Source of the DNA: Allobosea sp.
GTDB taxonomy: Bacteria > Pseudomonadota > Alphaproteobacteria > Rhizobiales > Beijerinckiaceae
Direction of reading: 5' to 3'
DNA length: 64,000 nt
Assembly: GCF_017308075.1 (NCBI RefSeq)
Contig: NZ_JAFKFX010000030.1
Span: 124,001 to 188,000 of the forward strand
Program-made: the position numbers and the translations under genes
Shown here: positions 5,620 through 12,895 of the stretch, in pieces
Position numbering within the stretch: position 1 is the stretch's first letter
How the letters are laid out: the number at the start of each line of letters is the position of its first letter
Notes under the pieces: generated by a model
The model's input: only the letters and a program-made list of their open reading frames with translations
What the model was told of the DNA's origin: nothing
Database searches by the model: none

Positions 5620-6024
5620 ATGCCTGCCATGAAACGAGAAATCATCGAAGTCCCCGTCATTTCGGAGGCGATCCGCCGGCTCGGCGCCCCGACCTCGGCG
5701 CTGGCCCGCGCCGGGGACCTGCTCTTCACCTGCGGCATGCCGCCGGTCGACCTGGTGACCGGCGAGATCGTCACCGGCGACATCGAGACCCAAACTCGCG
5801 CCGCGCTCGACGCGCTCGACGTTGCGCTGCGCCATGGCGGCTCCTCGCTCGACGCCGTCGTCAAGGCGACGGTCTACGTCACCGATCCCGCCTTGATGGC
5901 CGGCGTCAACGCCGTCTACCGGACCCGCTTCGCCGACGGTTTCCCGGCGCGGACGAGCCTCGCCATCAAGCCCTGGCCCCTGCCCTTCGACATCGAGATC
6001 GAGTGCGTCGCCACGATCGGCTGA
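5620..6024 (+). CDS. RidA family protein (reactive imine deaminase)
   Basis: Member of the RidA/YjgF/UK114 family, 134 residues. These small trimeric cytoplasmic enzymes hydrolyse 2-aminoacrylate and related imines produced by PLP enzymes. The sequence shows the family layout: an N-terminal SxAxRAGDLLFTCG strand, TRAALDALDVALRHGGSSLD in the middle, and a C-terminal ARTSLAIKPWPLPFDIEIE that carries the conserved arginine. Two in-frame ATGs (5620 and 5629) are possible starts. It follows the LysR gene by 28 bp and is closed by a strong hairpin terminator. It may take part in the catabolic route served by the importer or be a general protector. Confidence 0.88.
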   Translation: MPAMKREIIEVPVISEAIRRLGAPTSALARAGDLLFTCGMPPVDLVTGEIVTGDIETQTRAALDALDVALRHGGSSLDAVVKATVYVTDPALMAGVNAVYRTRFADGFPARTSLAIKPWPLPFDIEIECVATIG

Positions 6025-6045
6025 GACGCTCTGCAACCGCAACGC

Positions 6046-6082
6046 AAAGGGCTCGCCAGGCCATGCCCGGCGAGCCCTTTTT
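6046..6082 (+). terminator. rho-independent terminator after the ridA-like gene
   Basis: A perfect 9-bp inverted repeat, GGGCTCGCC (6049-6057) and GGCGAGCCC (6069-6077), encloses an 11-nt loop and is followed by TTTTT (6078-6082). AAA precedes the left arm, so the structure may also stop leftward transcripts coming from the NRPS gene. Confidence 0.88.
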
Positions 6083-6163
6083 CATGAGTTCCAGCGCCGC
6101 CTTACGAGCGTCTCCGGATTCGCGTCGCGTCCGGACCGGCTGTGCGGCCCGGCTCAGCAGTCG

Positions 6164-9100
6164 CTAATGCGCCGCTTTGGCCGGCACGGCGGGAGCGCCT
6201 TCCCAGCGCGTATTCGCCGGCAGGTTCTCGCCCTTCATGATCACCGTGAGCAGGCCGATCTGGGCGTAGTCGCCGACATGGGTGTCGTAGAGCACGGTCG
6301 CCCCCGCGCCGACGCAAACGCCCTTGCCGAGATGCACCCGGCCGACCTTCATCACCCGGTCCTCGTAGAGATGGGTCTGCAGCGCCGAATGGGCGTTGAC
6401 CGTGCAGAAATCACCGACCTTGATGCAGTCGAATTCGGTGATGTCGGTCGAGTCGAGCCAGACGCCCTGGCCGTATTGCGCACCGAACAGGCGCAGGAAC
6501 CAGGGCAGGAACGGCGTGCCACGCAGATAGTCGAGCAGCACCTTGCCGCCGAGGCCCCAATAGAGCACCGAGACGGCCTCGGTCCGCATCGCCCAGAACG
6601 ACCACATCGGCTTCATCACCGGCTTGTAGACGCCCATCAGCAGCCATTTCATCAGGGCGCAGATCAGCGCCTGCAGGATGGCGATGACGACCGCGCAGCC
6701 CATGAAGGCGAGCCCGAGCCCGACCCAGTCGCGGTCGAAGATCTTCTGCTGCAGCACGAGATCGACGGCGATGGTGCCGAAGGTGATGAACAGCATCGCC
6801 GGGAAGGAGGTGTGCAGCGCCTCGAAGCCGGCGCGCGCCAGCTTCTTGCCGAGCGAGGGCTTGTAGGTCCAGTCGGCACCCAGATCGACCTTCTGCCGGG
6901 TCGGCAGCTTGATCGGCGGCGAACCGAACCAGGTGTCGCCGGGCGACATCAGCTCGTTGGCCGGCGGCTTCGACTTGATGCCGATCAGCACCTTGTCGGG
7001 GATCACGGCGCCGGGCGGCACCACCGCGTCGTTCCCGACGAAGACCTGGTCGCCGGTGCGGGTCAGGTCGAGCCGCATATAGCCGCGGCGCATGTCCTCG
7101 TCGCCGAAGATCACCTCGTCGGCGATGAAGTTGCCGGCGCCGATGCCGGTGATGTCGTAGCGGCCGGAGAGATTGGTCGAGATCTCCGAGCCCTGGCCGA
7201 TGCCGGCGCCCATCATCCGGTACCAGAAGCGCATATAGATCGTCGCGAACAGCGAGGAGAGCGTCTCCAGCGTCACCTCGGTCGCCAGCGCCACCGTCCA
7301 TTTGCGGGCGTAGAAGCCGGAATGGATCGAATAGGAGCCGGAATTGACCCGCGGCAGGATCAGCCAGCGCAGCGCGATGATCAGGAACACCGTGATCGAG
7401 ATCAGGCCGATCGCGGTCGGCCAGGTCAGGAACGGCAGATACCAGAGATAGCTGACATCGGACCAGGTCGCGACCCAGTTGTCGATCTTGTCGAACAGCC
7501 AGAAGGCCGGGAAGATCGGCAAGAGGCTGATCGGCGGCAGCACGATCAGCATGACGATGTAGAACAGCGTCAGCGCGGCGCGGCGCTTGCCGCTCGCCTG
7601 CGCCTGCTCGGGCAGCGCCGCGACATCGACCATTCCGGTCTTGCGCGCCGGCGAGCCGTCCCAGATCTCGGCCTCGCCGATCTGCATCCCCGGCGCGATC
7701 GGCGTCAGGTCGCCGATCTCGGCATGATCGCCGACGACGCAGTCATGGCCGAACACTACGGAGGAACCGGCATAGACATCCTTGCCGATCTTGACCCGCC
7801 CGATGATCAGATTGGCGCCGACCGCCTCGGCATTGGCGAAGGTCGTCTTCGAGCCGAGCGTCGTATAGTCGCCGATCTCGATCAGATCGACCGCGCCGGC
7901 TTCATAGTCGGAGATGATAACGTCGCGCCCGACCTTGGCGCCGAGCAGGCGCCAGTAGAAGCGCATCACCGGCGTGCCCTGCAGCCATTTGATATGGACG
8001 AGCCCGGCGACGCGCGAGGCGAACCACCAGCGGAAGTAGTAGACGCCCCAGAGCGGGTAGACGCCCGGCTTGGTCCGGCCGAGCACCAGCCATTTCAGCC
8101 CGATCGAGATGAAACCGGTGATGATGGTGATCGCGACATAGATGCCGAGCAGCGCGAGCACCTGGCCGCCGAGCGAGAGCTCCTCGCCCGAGAGCAGCAT
8201 GTAGCTGACGAAGATGCCGAGCCATTGCGCCGTCGACAGGCTGATGATGATCGGCAGCGCCGCCGCCTGTGCCAGGCCGCAGAGGAAGCGGCGCAGCAGC
8301 GAGGGCGGCGTGAAGGAGAGATCCTCGGCGACCTGCGCACCCCGGCTGTCGAGCAGCGCCGCCATCGCCCGCAAGGTGCGCGCGCCGTAGACGTCCTGCA
8401 GGGTGATGCCGGCATAGGCCGGCGTCTCGCGCACGATCGAGATGAAGCGCGCCGCCAGCAGCGAATGGCCGCCGAGATCGACGAAGAAGTCCGCCTCGAG
8501 CGGCAGGGCCTGAGCACCGAGCACACGCTTGGCGGCGTCGAGCAGCGTCGCTTCCGTCGCGTTGCGCGGCGGCTCCTGCTCGCCGCTCGCCGCCGGCGCC
8601 GTCAAGGGCGCGGCCTTGAGCATCTTGCGGTCGACCTTGCCCGAGACCATGCGCGGCAGCGAGCCGATCGGCTCGAAATGCGCCGGAATCATGTAGGGCG
8701 GCAGCTTCTCGCGCAGCGAGGCGCGCAGCACCGCGCCCTCGAGCTGCACGCCAGGCTCGCCGACCAGGAAGGCGACCAGCCGCTCGATGCCGTCATCGGT
8801 GCGCAGCACCACCGCGGCCTGGCTGATGCCGGCCTCGTCCGACAGCGCCGTCTCGATCTCGCCGAGCTCGACGCGGAAGCCGCGGATCTTGACCTGGTCG
8901 TCGATGCGGCCGTGGAAGACGATGTTGCCGTTCTCGTCGAGGCTGACGGCGTCGCCCGAACGGTAGAGGATCGGATCCTCGGTACCGCCGAACGGATTGG
9001 CGATGAACTTCTCGGCGGTCAGCTCGGGCCGCAGATGATAGCCCTTGGCGACGCCCGGGCCGCCGATCAGAAGCTCGCCCTGCTGGCCGATACCGGTCAG

Positions 9101-10174
9101 CTTCATCTCCTCGTCGACGATATAGGCGGTGTAGTTTGGGATCGGCCGGCCGATCGTCACGGGCTGGCCGGGCTCGACCAGTGCTGCCGTCGCGACCACC
9201 GTCGCCTCGGTCGGGCCGTAGCTGTTGAGAATGCGCCGGCCGGGCCTCGACCATTTCTGCACGACCCCCGGCGGCAGCGCCTCGCCGCCGAGAATGATCA
9301 GCCTCAGCGACGGAATGTCGGCGGGCAGGATGCCGAGTAGCGTCGGCACCGTGTCGATCATCGTGACGCCGGCTTCGGTCAGGATCGCCGGCAGCTTCTC
9401 GGCATCGCCCATCATCTCCGGCGAGGCCACGAAAAGCGTCGCGCCTGCGAGATAGGGCGTCCAGATCTCCTCCATCGACAGGTCGAAGGCAACCGAGGCG
9501 CCCTGGAAGACGATGTCGTCCGGCCCCATGCCGTAGAGCACGTTCCCCGAGCGCAGGAAGTGGCAGATATTGCGATGGCTGATGACGATCGCCTTGGGGA
9601 CGCCCGTCGAGCCCGAAGTGTAGATCAGATAGGCCGGATGGTCGGGCGTCAGCCCGGCCGGCCGGGCCGGCGGCAAGGTGCCGTCGCTCGCGGCCGCGAG
9701 CTCCTGCGGCGACCAGATGGTGCGGTCGGTGGCAGCCGCCCTCGCCTTCCAGTCGGCCTGCGTCACCAGCCCCTTGGCGCTGGCATCGTCGAGACAGGTC
9801 GCGATGCGCTCGACCGGCGCCTCGGCATCGAAGGGCAGCCAGGCGGCGCCTGACAGGGTGATCGCGATCTGCGCCACCAGAAGATCGATGCCGCGCGACA
9901 TCCAGAGCCCGACCATGTCGCCCGGGCCGATGCCGGCGAGAGCCAGACCACGCGCCTGCGCCTGCGCCTGTTCCCAGACCTGGGCATAGGTGAGACGGCG
10001 CGCACCGGAGATCATCGCCGGATGGTCAGGGCGACTCGCGACCGTCGCGGCAAATATCTCGGCGAGGACCTCGTCGCGGATCAGCTCCGGCAGCTTCTCG
10101 CCGGCCAGCATGGCCAGAGGCCTTGCACCCTGGGCGAGCTCATCATCGGCGGAAATTGCGCTGATTTCGTTCAT
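6164..10174 (-). CDS. Pls/PosA-type non-ribosomal peptide synthetase
   Basis: Single-module membrane-bound synthetase of 1336 residues. Residues about 20-520 form an adenylation domain with YTSGSTGVPK (185-194), NSYGPTEAT (317-325), YRSGD (404-408), HGRIDDQVKIRGFRVELGE (421-439) and SGKVDRK (511-517). A carrier domain follows, with the phosphopantetheine serine in LGGHSLL at residue 571. The remaining ~740 residues alternate membrane helices with three left-handed beta-helix (hexapeptide) domains, the layout of epsilon-poly-lysine synthetase (Pls) and of the TIGR02353 terminal domain. No condensation or thioesterase domain is seen. The pocket residues, aligned by hand to GrsA, are D231, L232, E235, D274, I294, G296, S318, V326, V327 and K513, resembling codes for basic amino acids. 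The gene stands alone. The start at 10174 gives MNEISAISAD; an upstream in-frame ATG at 10273 would add a low-complexity tail. Confidence 0.9.
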   Translation of the reverse strand: MNEISAISADDELAQGARPLAMLAGEKLPELIRDEVLAEIFAATVASRPDHPAMISGARRLTYAQVWEQAQAQARGLALAGIGPGDMVGLWMSRGIDLLVAQIAITLSGAAWLPFDAEAPVERIATCLDDASAKGLVTQADWKARAAATDRTIWSPQELAAASDGTLPPARPAGLTPDHPAYLIYTSGSTGVPKAIVISHRNICHFLRSGNVLYGMGPDDIVFQGASVAFDLSMEEIWTPYLAGATLFVASPEMMGDAEKLPAILTEAGVTMIDTVPTLLGILPADIPSLRLIILGGEALPPGVVQKWSRPGRRILNSYGPTEATVVATAALVEPGQPVTIGRPIPNYTAYIVDEEMKLTGIGQQGELLIGGPGVAKGYHLRPELTAEKFIANPFGGTEDPILYRSGDAVSLDENGNIVFHGRIDDQVKIRGFRVELGEIETALSDEAGISQAAVVLRTDDGIERLVAFLVGEPGVQLEGAVLRASLREKLPPYMIPAHFEPIGSLPRMVSGKVDRKMLKAAPLTAPAASGEQEPPRNATEATLLDAAKRVLGAQALPLEADFFVDLGGHSLLAARFISIVRETPAYAGITLQDVYGARTLRAMAALLDSRGAQVAEDLSFTPPSLLRRFLCGLAQAAALPIIISLSTAQWLGIFVSYMLLSGEELSLGGQVLALLGIYVAITIITGFISIGLKWLVLGRTKPGVYPLWGVYYFRWWFASRVAGLVHIKWLQGTPVMRFYWRLLGAKVGRDVIISDYEAGAVDLIEIGDYTTLGSKTTFANAEAVGANLIIGRVKIGKDVYAGSSVVFGHDCVVGDHAEIGDLTPIAPGMQIGEAEIWDGSPARKTGMVDVAALPEQAQASGKRRAALTLFYIVMLIVLPPISLLPIFPAFWLFDKIDNWVATWSDVSYLWYLPFLTWPTAIGLISITVFLIIALRWLILPRVNSGSYSIHSGFYARKWTVALATEVTLETLSSLFATIYMRFWYRMMGAGIGQGSEISTNLSGRYDITGIGAGNFIADEVIFGDEDMRRGYMRLDLTRTGDQVFVGNDAVVPPGAVIPDKVLIGIKSKPPANELMSPGDTWFGSPPIKLPTRQKVDLGADWTYKPSLGKKLARAGFEALHTSFPAMLFITFGTIAVDLVLQQKIFDRDWVGLGLAFMGCAVVIAILQALICALMKWLLMGVYKPVMKPMWSFWAMRTEAVSVLYWGLGGKVLLDYLRGTPFLPWFLRLFGAQYGQGVWLDSTDITEFDCIKVGDFCTVNAHSALQTHLYEDRVMKVGRVHLGKGVCVGAGATVLYDTHVGDYAQIGLLTVIMKGENLPANTRWEGAPAVPAKAAH

Positions 10175-10449
10175 TCTGCCCCGCAGCGGCGACCACCGAC
10201 GCCGTTGCGTTCGGGCCCGGAAAACCCGCTGCGCATCCCGGCCTCCGGCGGCTAAAGCCGCACCTTCATCCACGCCAATGCGGACGCATCCCCTTCGCGC
10301 CCGCGCCCGCTCGAACCTTAGACCTTGAACGCCGCAGCCGCGCGGCTCCCCGTCGAGCGTAACTGCTCAGTTCGCGATGAATGCCCTATGAACGCCGGAG
10401 GGACAAGCCGAAACGCGGTTAAGGGCTCATCGCGGAGCGCAGCTTTCGG

Positions 10450-11037
10450 TTACTTCCAGCTCGCCTTGTCGCCTTCGACGACCAGGATCTTGCCCTGCCA
10501 GATCTCGACCTTCGCGGCTTCCGCCGGGTCGACCGCGCCGATCAGCGCCAGCACGGCGCGCGCCACGCCGCCATGGCTGACCATCACGGTGTCCGGTGCC
10601 ATCGCCTCCAGAGACGGGCGGATGCGCTCCGCCAGCATTCGGTAGCTCTCGCCGCCGGGCGGCACGAAACCCCATTTGTCACGCTCGCGCGCCTGGGCGA
10701 GCTCACGCTCGCTCTTGCGGATCTCGCGCCAGGTGAAGCCCTCCCAATCCCCGAAGGTCAGCTCCTTGAGCTGATCGTCGATGCGGTAATCCTCGGGCGG
10801 CAGGGAAAGCTCGTTGCGCAGGATGGTCATCGTCTCGCGAGCCCGATGCATCGGCGAGGCGACATAGGCACTTGTCGCGAATTCCGGCTTCAGCGCCCGC
10901 AGCCGGTCGGCGACCTCGGCCGCCTGCATCCGGCCGAGCGCGTTCAGCGGGATGTCCTGCGAGCCTTGCAGACGGCCCTCACGGTTCCAATCGGTTTCGC
11001 CATGGCGGACGAGGAAAAGGCGACCAGGAAGCGACAT
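10450..11037 (-). CDS. histidine phosphatase family protein (phosphoglycerate-mutase-like)
   Basis: Cytoplasmic phosphatase of the histidine-phosphatase superfamily, 195 residues. The catalytic LVRHGETDWNREGRLQG (around residues 8-24) carries the phospho-accepting histidine. The second histidine is in MVSHGGVARA near residue 157. RARETMTIL and FGDWEGFTWREI are also typical of the cobalamin/GpmB-like branch. ATG 11037 gives MSLPGRLF; ATG 11046 three codons upstream is an alternative. The true substrate is not deducible; a separate iPGM-type glycolytic mutase occurs at 34310-35824, so this is probably not the main glycolytic enzyme. It is divergent from folP with 148 bp between the starts. Confidence 0.85.
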   Translation of the reverse strand: MSLPGRLFLVRHGETDWNREGRLQGSQDIPLNALGRMQAAEVADRLRALKPEFATSAYVASPMHRARETMTILRNELSLPPEDYRIDDQLKELTFGDWEGFTWREIRKSERELAQARERDKWGFVPPGGESYRMLAERIRPSLEAMAPDTVMVSHGGVARAVLALIGAVDPAEAAKVEIWQGKILVVEGDKASWK

Positions 11038-11185
11038 GCGTATCATGCCCTGCCTCATGCACGCTCGCGCCCGCAGCGTCAAAGCGGCGAAAGCGCCGCA
11101 GGGCTGCCTCACATGCATGCGAGCTTTCCGGTGGCCGGGACAGCGCAGCCTGTGTATAGGCGGCTCTCGCCCTCCAGGTCGCCGC

Positions 11186-12019
11186 ATGAACACCTCTCTA
11201 ACCTTGCCGGACGGCCGCAGGCTCGCCTTCGGAACCGCCCCCCTGCTGATGGGCGTGGTCAACGTCACGCCCGATTCCTTCTCCGATGGCGGCCTCTTCG
11301 CCGATCCCGCCATCGCCGTCGCGCATGGCCTGAAGCTGGCGCAGCAGGGCGCAGACATCGTCGATATCGGCGGCGAATCGACCAGGCCCGGCCATGAGCG
11401 CCTCGATGCGCAGGCCGAGCTGGCCCGCGTCCTGCCGGTGGTCGCCGGCATCGCCGCCGCGAGCCCGGTGCCGATCTCGATCGACACCTACAAGGCCGAG
11501 GTCGCCGAGGCGGCGCTGAAGGCAGGCGCCGCGCTCGTCAACGATGTCTGGGGCTGCCAGCGCGAGCCGGCCATCGCCGGGGTCGCCGCCCGCTTCGGCG
11601 CACCGATGGTGCTGATGCACAATCGCGACAGCGTCGATGCCAGCCTCGACATCCTCGCCGAAGTGCTGCGTTTCCTGGAAAAATCCATCGGCATCGCCGT
11701 CGCGGCCGGAGTTCCGCGCGGGCAGATCGTCGTCGATCCCGGCATCGGCTTCGGCAAGACGCCGGAGCAGAACCTCGCCTTGATCGAGAAGCTCGATCGG
11801 CTGCCGGAGGCGCTCGGCTGCGCGGTCCTGCTCGGCGCCTCGCGGAAGTCGACGCTCGGCCTCGTCACCGGCAAGACAATCCCGGCCGAGCGGCTCGCGG
11901 CCACGCTCGCCGCCCATCTCTACGGGGTGATGCGCGGCGCCGCGATCATCCGGGCCCATGACATCGACGAACATGTCGACGCGCTCAAGATCTGGGCCGC
12001 GATCAGGAGGACGGCATGA
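11186..12019 (+). CDS. folP: dihydropteroate synthase
   Basis: Joins p-aminobenzoate to the pterin pyrophosphate to make dihydropteroate, a folate-pathway step and the sulfonamide target. The protein has 277 residues, normal size. The signatures GVVNVTPDSFSDGG (around residues 24-37), GGESTRPG (around 63-70), DPGIGFGKTPEQN (around 191-203) and GASRKSTLG (around 225-233) are all intact. The ATG at 11186 is followed directly by a strand that leads into the TIM barrel. The last four bases overlap folB (ATGA at 12016-12019), so folP-folB-folK form a coupled three-gene folate operon. Confidence 0.96.
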   Translation: MNTSLTLPDGRRLAFGTAPLLMGVVNVTPDSFSDGGLFADPAIAVAHGLKLAQQGADIVDIGGESTRPGHERLDAQAELARVLPVVAGIAAASPVPISIDTYKAEVAEAALKAGAALVNDVWGCQREPAIAGVAARFGAPMVLMHNRDSVDASLDILAEVLRFLEKSIGIAVAAGVPRGQIVVDPGIGFGKTPEQNLALIEKLDRLPEALGCAVLLGASRKSTLGLVTGKTIPAERLAATLAAHLYGVMRGAAIIRAHDIDEHVDALKIWAAIRRTA

Positions 12020-12390
12020 GCGCGACCGGTCAGATCTTCATCGAGGCGCTCGACCTCTACGCCTATCATGGCCATTTCGCCGAGGAGGGCCGCCTCGGCC
12101 AGCGCTTCTCGATGGACCTCGTCCTCGACTGCGACCTGCGCACATCATCGGTCAGCGACGACCTCGCCGACACCGTCGACTATGGCGAGGTGGTCGCGCT
12201 CGTCACCCGCACCTTCTCGGCTCGGCGCTTCAAGCTTCTGGAAGCCGCGGCGCGCGCGCTCGCCGACGCGATCCTGGCACAATATCCGCCGGTGACCCGC
12301 GTCTCGGTCACCCTGCGCAAACCCTCGCCGCCCATCCCCGGCCGGATGGAATCGGTCGGCATCAAGCTGGACTTCCAGCGTGAGGCTTGA
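12016..12390 (+). CDS. folB: dihydroneopterin aldolase
   Basis: Converts 7,8-dihydroneopterin to 6-hydroxymethyl-dihydropterin plus glycolaldehyde. The protein has 124 residues, typical for FolB. Seen are the N-terminal EALDLYAYHGHFAEEGRLGQ with the conserved tyrosine and histidine, the DTVDYGEVVALV substrate segment and a C-terminal VTLRKPSPPIPGRMESVG. The start overlaps the folP stop by four bases, and the 3' end overlaps folK by 11 bases. It supplies the substrate of FolK, the next gene. Confidence 0.95.
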   Translation: MSATGQIFIEALDLYAYHGHFAEEGRLGQRFSMDLVLDCDLRTSSVSDDLADTVDYGEVVALVTRTFSARRFKLLEAAARALADAILAQYPPVTRVSVTLRKPSPPIPGRMESVGIKLDFQREA

Positions 12391-12895
12391 AGCGACGCTC
12401 GGCCTGGGCGGCAATATCGGTGATCCCGTCGCAGCCTTCGCCGCGGCCCTGGCACGGCTGCGCGCTCACCCTGCCGTGTCGGTCAAGGCGACCTCCTCTG
12501 TCTGGCGCACCGCCCCCTGGGGCAAGCTCGACCAGCCGGAATTCCGCAATATGGCCGTGCTGCTGGAAACCTCGCTACCGGCCGAGGATCTGCTCGACCT
12601 CTGCCTCGCCATCGAGCGCGAGAGCGGTCGCGAACGTGGCGAGCGCTGGGGGCCGCGCACGCTCGACATCGACATCCTGACCTATGGCGGCCAGACGATC
12701 GACCGGCCCGGCCTGCAGGTCCCGCATCCGCGCATCGCCGAACGCGCCTTCGTGCTGGCGCCGCTCGCCGAGATCGCGCCGGGAATGCGGATTGCCGGAC
12801 GCAGCGTCCCGGACTTGCTGGCCGCGCTCGGCGACGACGATATCGGCCAGGACGAGGCCGGAACACTGCGATTGCAGGCTGCGCTTGCCCGCTAG
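12380..12895 (+). CDS. folK: 6-hydroxymethyl-dihydropterin pyrophosphokinase
   Basis: Transfers pyrophosphate from ATP to hydroxymethyl-dihydropterin, giving the FolP substrate. The protein has 171 residues. The HPPK signatures are present: LGLGGNIGDP at the N-terminus and the ERWGPRTLDIDILTYGG block near residues 91-107, with the two metal-binding aspartates. The start lies inside the end of folB (11-bp overlap), so translation is probably coupled. It is the last gene of the folate operon, and the next gene (fabI) converges on it. Confidence 0.95.
   Translation: MRLEATLGLGGNIGDPVAAFAAALARLRAHPAVSVKATSSVWRTAPWGKLDQPEFRNMAVLLETSLPAEDLLDLCLAIERESGRERGERWGPRTLDIDILTYGGQTIDRPGLQVPHPRIAERAFVLAPLAEIAPGMRIAGRSVPDLLAALGDDDIGQDEAGTLRLQAALAR

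What the first reader, a model, noticed from the sequence alone, without database searches (positions are those of the whole stretch)
6164..10174. Lone Pls/PosA-type synthetase with a basic-amino-acid-like pocket
One A-T module continues into a ~740-residue membrane region with three beta-helix repeats, the design used by epsilon-poly-lysine synthetase. No condensation or thioesterase domain is present. Hand alignment to GrsA gives the code D-L-E-D-I-G-S-V-V-K, with acidic residues at the 239 and 278 positions, similar to lysine/ornithine/diaminobutyrate codes. A cationic homopolymer made by an alphaproteobacterium would be interesting.
Basis: partly seen in the sequence, partly recalled or inferred. 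Interest (0 to 1): 0.72.

Follow-up and report, generated by a model that had tools for sequence, protein, structure and literature searches.

The report
Bosea cationic polyamino-acid synthetase, PosA-like
This gene encodes a membrane-bound enzyme of the known poly-lysine/poly-ornithine synthetase family, probably making short chains of a positively charged amino acid (most likely ornithine) in a soil bacterium; the enzyme type is known, but what this branch makes has not been shown.

Summary
Window 6164-10174, minus strand, encodes a 1336-aa adenylation-thiolation protein ending in the Pls/PosA membrane domain (TIGR02353, 573 bits, cut-off 423), without condensation or thioesterase domain. 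The pocket code is as read by hand: DLEDIGSVVK. Glu268 aligns with Glu221 of PosA, which binds ornithine's side-chain amine in that crystal structure. The closest characterised enzyme is PosA, the Acinetobacter delta-poly-L-ornithine synthetase (43% identity over 96%; sister clade, support 1.0), rather than Pls. The host is Bosea-like and has a second copy with the same code. 82 of 119 sampled family genomes hold a TIGR02353 match; 32 of 40 neighbourhoods examined have it directly behind a histidine phosphatase or fabI. Only 2 of 30 DLED-code genomes have a diaminobutyrate aminotransferase over cut-off and none an ectB, so Dab is unlikely as the common substrate. L-ornithine is my first choice, then lysine, then arginine. 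Patel and Gulick (2023) already reported the near-identical code DLEDIGTV(T/V/I)K in Rhizobia and Methylobacterium as a unique signature without assigned substrate. So this is a new member of a known kind with an untested product. The fixed chromosomal place suggests a routine function rather than an accessory antibiotic; that is inference.

The parts
6164..10174 (-). Pls/PosA-family synthetase gene, ATG start, 1336 aa (open frame reaches GTG at 10273)
   Evidence: start favoured by where 31 of 40 close homologues begin to match
8636..10051 (-). adenylation domain (P0001 residues 75-546)
   Evidence: Pfam AMP-binding 268 bits and AMP-binding_C 38.8 bits; AlphaFold2 model pLDDT 86.9, best PDB match delta-poly-L-ornithine synthetase 8g95, TM 0.94 by target
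9470..9484 (-). code residues D264, L265, E268 (GrsA positions 235, 236, 239)
   Evidence: aligned to PosA D217, M218, E221; Asp and Glu present in 161 of 161 readable rows of 170 aligned
9353..9355 (-). code residue D307 (GrsA position 278)
   Evidence: aligned to PosA H260; Asp in the DLED-code rows
9194..9295 (-). code residues I327, G329, S351, V359, V360
8351..8548 (-). thiolation (carrier) domain; motif LGGHSLL, attachment serine S604
   Evidence: Pfam PP-binding 31.3 bits; sequence printed
6188..8272 (-). membrane polymerisation domain (P0001 residues 668-1362)
   Evidence: TIGR02353 573 bits over profile positions 2-695 of 695; AlphaFold2 model pLDDT 86.4, pTM 0.88
7619..7945 (-). first left-handed beta-helix repeat (about residues 777-885)
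6899..7207 (-). second beta-helix repeat (about residues 1023-1125)
   Evidence: model; weak hexapeptide sequence matches, best E 0.0012
6176..6484 (-). third beta-helix repeat (about residues 1264-1366)
   Evidence: model; weak hexapeptide sequence matches, best E 0.0043
6347..6379 (-). QTHLYEDRVMK motif: candidate catalytic Q1299, H1301, E1304, K1309
   Evidence: all four identical in 162 of 162 rows with more than 1000 residues, duplicates and the gene itself (L001) included
10450..11022 (-). neighbouring histidine-phosphatase gene (start approximate); not needed for the proposed function
   Evidence: PF00300 157.1 bits; directly upstream in 28 of 40 loci, but also kept next to fabI in genomes without a detected synthetase

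Best explanation
It is a cationic homo-polyamino-acid (CHPA) synthetase on the PosA branch of the Pls/PosA family. A phosphopantetheinyl transferase loads Ser604 of the carrier domain. The adenylation domain activates a basic amino acid with ATP: Asp264 holds the alpha-amine and Glu268, perhaps with Asp307, holds the side-chain amine. Leu265 has nearly the size of PosA's Met218, which the PosA authors propose sets chain length, so L-ornithine is the likeliest substrate (about 0.5). The three fused beta-helix repeats act as one condensation domain at the membrane: His1301 and its neighbours in repeat 3 let the side-chain amine of a free monomer or growing chain attack the carrier-bound aminoacyl thioester, repeatedly, giving a short isopeptide-linked polycation without a condensation or thioesterase domain. 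Shown here by computation: domains, code, fold, tree, conserved residues. Inferred: substrate, the catalytic role of His1301, polymer formation and its use by the cell. The confidence is for the enzyme type and mechanism; the first three rivals differ only in substrate.
For: TIGR02353 above its cut-off. Nearest single PDB A domain is the delta-poly-L-ornithine synthetase 8g95, 423 bits against 302 for GrsA and 274 for Pls; LgrA heads that list at 562.7 only as the sum of two domains, 285.5 at best each. PosA entries are the top six fold matches, 48-49% identity. A. baumannii homologues are 42.9% identical over 96%. The DLED clade is sister to the PosA group in the whole, A-only and C-only trees (supports 1.0, 0.996, 1.0) and again with a full-length A. 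baumannii sequence (1.0). Dab-making enzymes are mostly missing: no dat or ectB over cut-off in the own genome, dat in 2 of 30 and ectB in 0 of 30 DLED-code genomes. Two PF01648 phosphopantetheinyl-transferase matches in the own genome, and such a gene 8 bases after a DLED relative in Rhizobium sp. CCGE531. Purifying selection. PosA biochemistry: PMC10522769, text parts 1-5 of 8 read.
Against: The pocket is not PosA's: Met236 to Leu, His278 to Asp, Asn299 to Ile, Thr322 to Ser, Ser331 to Val. In PosA the S313A change cut efficiency 183-fold, so specificity may have moved. The clade code DLEDIGTVVK differs from Pls (DAESIGTVV, read by eye, final Lys assumed) at only two positions, which points towards lysine. 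Arg-activating domains are described as clustering on D-(A/V)-E-D-(I/V/L)-G (PMC12283262, passages). The repeat-3 motif QTHL(Y/F)EDRVMK does not single out ornithine: it also occurs in the DAES rows and in DFE-code actinobacterial members L203 and L204, one of them beside a diaminobutyrate transaminase gene. The PosA paper leaves the near-identical code unassigned. No product has been seen and no role in the cell is known.
Confidence: 0.7

Rival explanations
1. Same enzyme type, but the substrate is L-lysine and the product an epsilon-poly-lysine.
For: Clade code DLEDIGTVVK matches Pls DAESIGTVV(K) at 8 of 10 positions with the last Lys assumed (codes; Pls letters read by eye from the 7wew alignment); this gene's own code DLEDIGSVVK at 7. 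PMC12283262 gives DGEDHGTVVK among Lys codes (passage).
Against: Position 236 is Leu, not the small Ala of Pls; in PosA M218A raised lysine use nearly ten-fold (PMC10522769). The tree puts the clade with PosA, not with the DAES row.
Confidence: 0.2
2. The A domain activates arginine or another guanidine or unusual cation, so the product is not one of the known CHPA polymers.
For: Glu239 plus Asp278 with Ile299 and Gly301 fits the Arg clustering described in PMC12283262 (passage); a Bdellovibrionales family member activates L-arginine (PMC10522769).
Against: A guanidine is a poor isopeptide nucleophile (established chemistry); positions 236, 322 and 331 differ from the Arg pattern; the polymerisation domain keeps its conserved residues.
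Confidence: 0.12
3. The substrate is 2,4-diaminobutyrate or 2,3-diaminopropionate.
For: A Streptomyces relative with code DFECLSAVTK sits directly before a diaminobutyrate transaminase gene, so such members appear to exist, and it shares the QTHLFEDRVMK motif. Odds raised slightly from 0.06 on rechecking that motif.
Against: Own genome and 28 of 30 DLED-code genomes lack dat over cut-off, and own genome and 30 of 30 lack ectB over cut-off (the ectB cut-off was met in none of the 14 control genomes, the dat cut-off in one). Position 236 is Leu, not Phe. Diaminopropionate genes were not searched.
Confidence: 0.08
4. The membrane domain moves the activated amino acid onto a lipid or another cell-surface acceptor rather than making a free homopolymer.
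For: Membrane regions and acetyltransferase-like fold; recombinant Pls esterifies its product with glycerol or PEG (PMC9606270, passage); wide retention at a fixed place looks like a routine function.
Against: The CHPA products named in PMC10522769 are free polymers, and PosA, the closest relative, was shown to make one in vitro.
Confidence: 0.1

Closest known systems
PosA, delta-poly-L-ornithine synthetase of Acinetobacter baumannii (PDB 8g95-8g98; PMC10522769)
   Same: Same A-T-membrane architecture; A. baumannii homologues 42.9% identical over 96%; sister group in the tree; Asp217/Glu221 equivalents kept; repeat-3 motif nearly the same; single gene without a pathway cluster.
   Different: Code DMEHNGTVSK against DLEDIGSVVK: Met to Leu, His to Asp, Asn to Ile, Thr to Ser, Ser to Val; different bacterial class of host.
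Pls, epsilon-poly-L-lysine synthetase (PDB 7wew, A domain)
   Same: Same family and architecture; Asp, Glu, Ile, Gly and Val-Val of the code shared; membrane condensation domain in place of C and TE domains.
   Different: Ala at 236 and Ser at 278 (code DAESIGTVV, read by eye); 36% identity in the fold alignment; more distant in the tree if the DAES row stands for Pls.
CHPA subgroup with code DLEDIGTV(T/V/I)K in archaea, Rhizobia and Methylobacterium (named in PMC10522769)
   Same: Practically the same code; Methylobacterium and Rhizobium homologues found here carry DLEDLGTVVK and DLEDIGTVVK.
   Different: Ser instead of Thr at 322 in this copy. In the parts read, no member of the subgroup is characterised.
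Left-handed beta-helix acetyltransferases (maltose/galactoside O-acetyltransferase)
   Different: Here three unequal copies are fused with membrane helices; at most 24% identity in the rows listed; no evidence for acetyl transfer.

Membership tests
Pls/PosA (CHPA) synthetase family | TIGR02353 terminal domain above curated cut-off | tested here: met
   573 bits, cut-off 423.1, profile 2-695 of 695
Pls/PosA (CHPA) synthetase family | single A-T module, no condensation or thioesterase domain | tested here: met
   Pfam reports only AMP-binding, AMP-binding_C, PP-binding and Hexapep
Pls/PosA (CHPA) synthetase family | three soluble repeats, each preceded by membrane helices | tested here: met
   hydrophobic regions and AlphaFold2 model; predictions only
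Pls/PosA (CHPA) synthetase family | Asp235 and Glu239 of the pocket, described as conserved in CHPA synthetases (PMC10522769) | tested here: met
   D264 and E268; Asp and Glu in 161 of 161 readable rows of 170 aligned
Pls/PosA (CHPA) synthetase family | makes an isopeptide-linked cationic homopolymer | not testable with these tools
   needs enzyme assay and mass spectrometry
delta-poly-L-ornithine synthetase (PosA proper) | closest relative of PosA by tree | tested here: met
   sister clade, supports 1.0 (whole), 0.996 (A), 1.0 (C-terminal); repeated
delta-poly-L-ornithine synthetase (PosA proper) | pocket code DMEHNG(T/S)V(S/T)K | tested here: not met
   DLEDIGSVVK, so not filed as PosA proper
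epsilon-poly-L-lysine synthetase (Pls proper) | Ala at position 236 | tested here: not met
   Leu265; Pls has Ala (alignment; PMC10522769)
poly-Dap/poly-Dab synthetase | Phe at position 236 (as stated in PMC10522769) | tested here: not met
   Leu265
poly-Dap/poly-Dab synthetase | host can make diaminobutyrate by Dat or EctB | tested here: not met
   no dat (best 261.2 of 401.6 bits) and no ectB (best 231 of 552.2) over cut-off in the own genome; diaminopropionate genes not searched

The most novel reading that the evidence does not exclude
The DLED clade makes a polycation not yet reported, from a substrate or linkage outside the known set, as a routine product of a large part of an alphaproteobacterial family: a vertically inherited cell-surface or stress polymer rather than an accessory antibiotic, with at least one species carrying two enzymes of the same code.
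Probability: 0.22. Interest if true: 0.7.

Novelty: new member of a known kind. Interest (0 to 1): 0.38.

Why it matters
Polycationic isopeptides have antimicrobial and cell-penetrating uses, yet their role for the producing bacterium is called unclear (PMC9606270, abstract passage). A branch with one almost invariant pocket, found at the same chromosomal place in most of the neighbourhoods examined, gives an easily tested system: one purified A domain would suggest the substrate for the whole branch, and one deletion in a soil bacterium could show what the polymer is for.

Tried and rejected
Neighbourhood as a clue to substrate: rejected. The upstream histidine phosphatase is next to the synthetase in 28 of 40 loci examined, but fabI lies beside the phosphatase in 12 of 15 loci taken from genomes with no synthetase detected at the search threshold. 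Those 15 are the stronger of 18 loci found in 20 such genomes; L195 among them does carry the start of a synthetase at a contig end. So the phosphatase is an old neighbour, not a partner. The paralogue on contig C10 has neighbours with no evident link: carboxylase subunits, MaoC, TetR, GST, HxlR.

It separates the DLED and PosA groups from the proteobacterial DFEALG group, but the DAES rows and two actinobacterial DFE-code proteins have it too.

The 1057-aa open frame on the plus strand inside the gene (6167-9340) is treated as a shadow frame: it lies opposite a conserved protein, and similar frames matched in 38 of 40 loci. It was not searched in the family libraries. No sigma-70-like promoter was found in 5900-10600, and the two terminator-like sites are about what chance gives.

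Searching print: 'DLEDIG' as one word gave two papers unrelated by title; six similar codes gave three papers, of which by title and abstract start only PMC3207962 (pyoverdine) concerns peptide synthetases; 'PosA family' gave none; searches listed no paper on this enzyme in these hosts apart from PMC10522769 (15 of 19, 12 of 1,169 and 2 of 2 papers shown). The PosA paper prints the code with spaces, so the one-word search misses it. The library holds open-licence papers only. PMC4668381 was seen in passages and not used.

Rows dropped or poor: L003-L006 (weak hexapeptide matches), L077 and L078 (matched only over the A-T part) were left out before code reading. 9 of 170 rows have unreadable codes (fragments or misaligned N-termini). 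L067, code unreadable, was counted with the DLED clade by its place in the tree. L205 entered the tree with a wrong frame and should be ignored. L001 is the gene itself; L002 and L079 are the same paralogue. Rooting is assumed: the DFE/DYE rows were not monophyletic and were set as outgroup.

Fold search of the terminal domain: VIA-align rows span mainly the first repeat (model residues 79-236), so repeats 2 and 3 rest on the model and on weak sequence matches. No solved structure of a Pls/PosA terminal domain appeared in the rows; that does not prove there is none.
Full report
WHAT IS THERE. The finding lies on the minus strand. Of 40 full-length homologues at 77% identity or more, 31 begin to match at residues 25-33 of the longer reading and 9 further upstream, so the ATG is preferred but not proven. 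Pfam finds AMP-binding (268 bits), AMP-binding_C, PP-binding and one Hexapep stretch, with no condensation or thioesterase family. NCBIfam gives TIGR02353, Pls/PosA family non-ribosomal peptide synthetase terminal domain, at 573 bits against a cut-off of 423.1 over nearly the whole profile (the best 25 of 115 matching families were shown).

POCKET. In the PDB alignment E268 faces PosA Glu221, D307 faces His260, S351 faces Thr304 and V360 faces Ser313 (PosA numbering from PMC10522769). In PosA, Asp217 holds the alpha-amine, Glu221 the side-chain amine, and mutation of either abolished activity (PMC10522769, text parts 1-5 of 8 read). Of 170 aligned rows, 161 have a readable code and all 161 have Asp at 235 and Glu at 239; 131 of the 161, duplicates, the gene itself and its paralogue included, read DLED(I/L/V)G(S/T)VVK. 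Most of these rows came from searches centred on the query, so the proportion is not a census. The other readable rows carry PosA-type DMEHNG codes, DFE and DYE codes, DAESVGTVVK, DGESVSVVNK, DSECYGGVTK and DVEANGTGSK.

RELATIVES. The nearest single PDB adenylation domain is the delta-poly-L-ornithine synthetase (423 bits; GrsA 302, Pls 274; LgrA 562.7 as the sum of two domains, at best 285.5 each), and its crystal structures are the top six fold matches of the A-domain model (pLDDT 86.9; TM 0.93-0.94 by target, 48-49% identity). tblastn against plasmid records finds A. baumannii homologues at 42.9% identity over 96%; the one fetched has the PosA code DMEHNGTVSK and is 51.3% identical in the A domain and 37.9% in the terminal domain. 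In FastTree trees of 63-64 sequences (thinned at 80% identity from 164 rows) the DLED clade is recovered with support 0.94 (whole), 0.83 (A only) and 0.925 (terminal domain only), and its sister is the PosA group with 1.0, 0.996 and 1.0. In the whole and terminal-domain trees further DMEHNG lineages lie just outside, so the DLED code probably arose from a PosA-like one. The A-only tree does not resolve this deeper order. With the full-length A. baumannii sequence the sister relation again has support 1.0. The trees are rooted on DFE/DYE-code rows, a choice of mine; these rows were not monophyletic.

SUBSTRATE. The PosA authors propose that position 236 sets chain length: Phe for Dap/Dab, Met for Orn, Ala for Lys (PMC10522769). 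Leu is close to Met in size (established knowledge). The Pls code, read by eye from the 7wew alignment, is DAESIGTVV with the final Lys outside the alignment; it differs from the DLEDIGTVVK found in the clade only at positions 236 and 278. PMC12283262 (passages) describes Orn/Lys codes such as DMEDVGSVDK and DGEDHGTVVK and an Arg cluster D-(A/V)-E-D-(I/V/L)-G, so an acid at 278 beside Glu239 occurs with Orn, Lys and Arg. Metabolism argues against diaminobutyrate: in the own genome no dat (best 261.2 of 401.6 bits) and no ectB (best 231 of 552.2) reaches its cut-off; of 30 genomes whose synthetase code was read as DLED-type (27 of them at least 90% complete), 2 have dat over cut-off and 0 have ectB over cut-off. 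Among the 14 control genomes the dat cut-off was met in one and the ectB cut-off in none, so the ectB search has no positive control. Ornithine, lysine and arginine are primary metabolites (established knowledge). My order is ornithine (about 0.5), lysine (0.2), arginine or another cation (0.12), Dab/Dap (0.08, raised from 0.06 when the motif argument fell), the rest unassigned. The two-position difference from Pls and the loss of PosA's Ser313 count against certainty.

SETTING. The genome is Bosea-like: the best named locus is Bosea sp. WAO, 96% identical. Its other Pls/PosA gene (L079 8353-12357, 1334 aa) has the same code and 56% identity. TIGR02353 matches at E <= 1e-60 occur in 82 of 119 genomes of the family (the own genome is among the rows), in 31 of 199 of an order sample with seven same-family genomes among the matches, and in 25 of 299 of a phylum sample with 12 same-family genomes among them. 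The family figure is a lower bound, since one genome counted as without a match has the start of the gene at a contig end (L195). Not all family matches are DLED: 2 of the 30 family loci read have DFEALG codes (L080, L089). In 40 neighbourhoods (20 of the 72 loci, chosen by me for spread, and all 20; one duplicate pair) the histidine phosphatase is directly upstream in 28, fabI directly upstream without it in 4, neither in 8, of which two are not DLED. The gene thus usually sits behind an old fabI-phosphatase pair and looks inherited vertically, though DLED genes also occur on an Azospirillum and a Rhizobium replicon listed as plasmids. dN/dS against six Bosea-group homologues is 0.07-0.33. 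A phosphopantetheinyl transferase gene follows the Rhizobium sp. CCGE531 synthetase by 8 bases, and the own genome has two PF01648 matches, one within a 260-aa frame that looks Sfp-like to me by eye.

JUDGEMENT. It is a member of a family described since 2008 (recalled; the 2008 paper is in the reference list seen), annotated as Pls/PosA family in many public records, and its code class was already noted as a unique, unassigned signature in 2023. What is added here: the sister relation to PosA in both halves of the protein, the near-absence of diaminobutyrate-making genes, the invariant QxHxxE....K set in repeat 3, and the recurring chromosomal place across the family. The product remains untested.

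Noticed in passing
L079 8353-12357 (own genome, contig C10): Second Pls/PosA-family gene, 1334 aa, same code DLEDIGSVVK, about 56% identical to the window gene; beside carboxylase-subunit, MaoC and TetR genes, away from the fabI locus. Only this genome and G108, with a partial second match, show two matches in the family search.
   Followed up: partly
L202 7992-13612 (Rhizobium sp. CCGE531 plasmid): DLED-code synthetase followed after 8 bases by a phosphopantetheinyl transferase and then an isoprenylcysteine carboxylmethyltransferase-like gene, with a two-component system upstream; a possible operon that could hint at regulation or membrane modification.
   Followed up: no
L203 517-5151 (Streptomyces sp. 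NBC_01527 plasmid): Family member with code DFECLSAVTK directly before a diaminobutyrate transaminase gene: a likely poly-Dab synthetase, and a possible assignment for the same code in an alphaproteobacterium (L136).
   Followed up: no
   Followed up: no
window 10952-12895, plus strand: In the six Bosea-group loci examined, folP and folK genes lie between fabI and the histidine phosphatase; in 16 of the 28 phosphatase-adjacent loci fabI is within 1 kb of the phosphatase.
   Followed up: partly
window 6167-9340, plus strand: A 1057-aa open frame antisense to the synthetase, with similar frames in 38 of 40 loci; taken as a high-GC shadow frame.
   Followed up: partly
   Followed up: no
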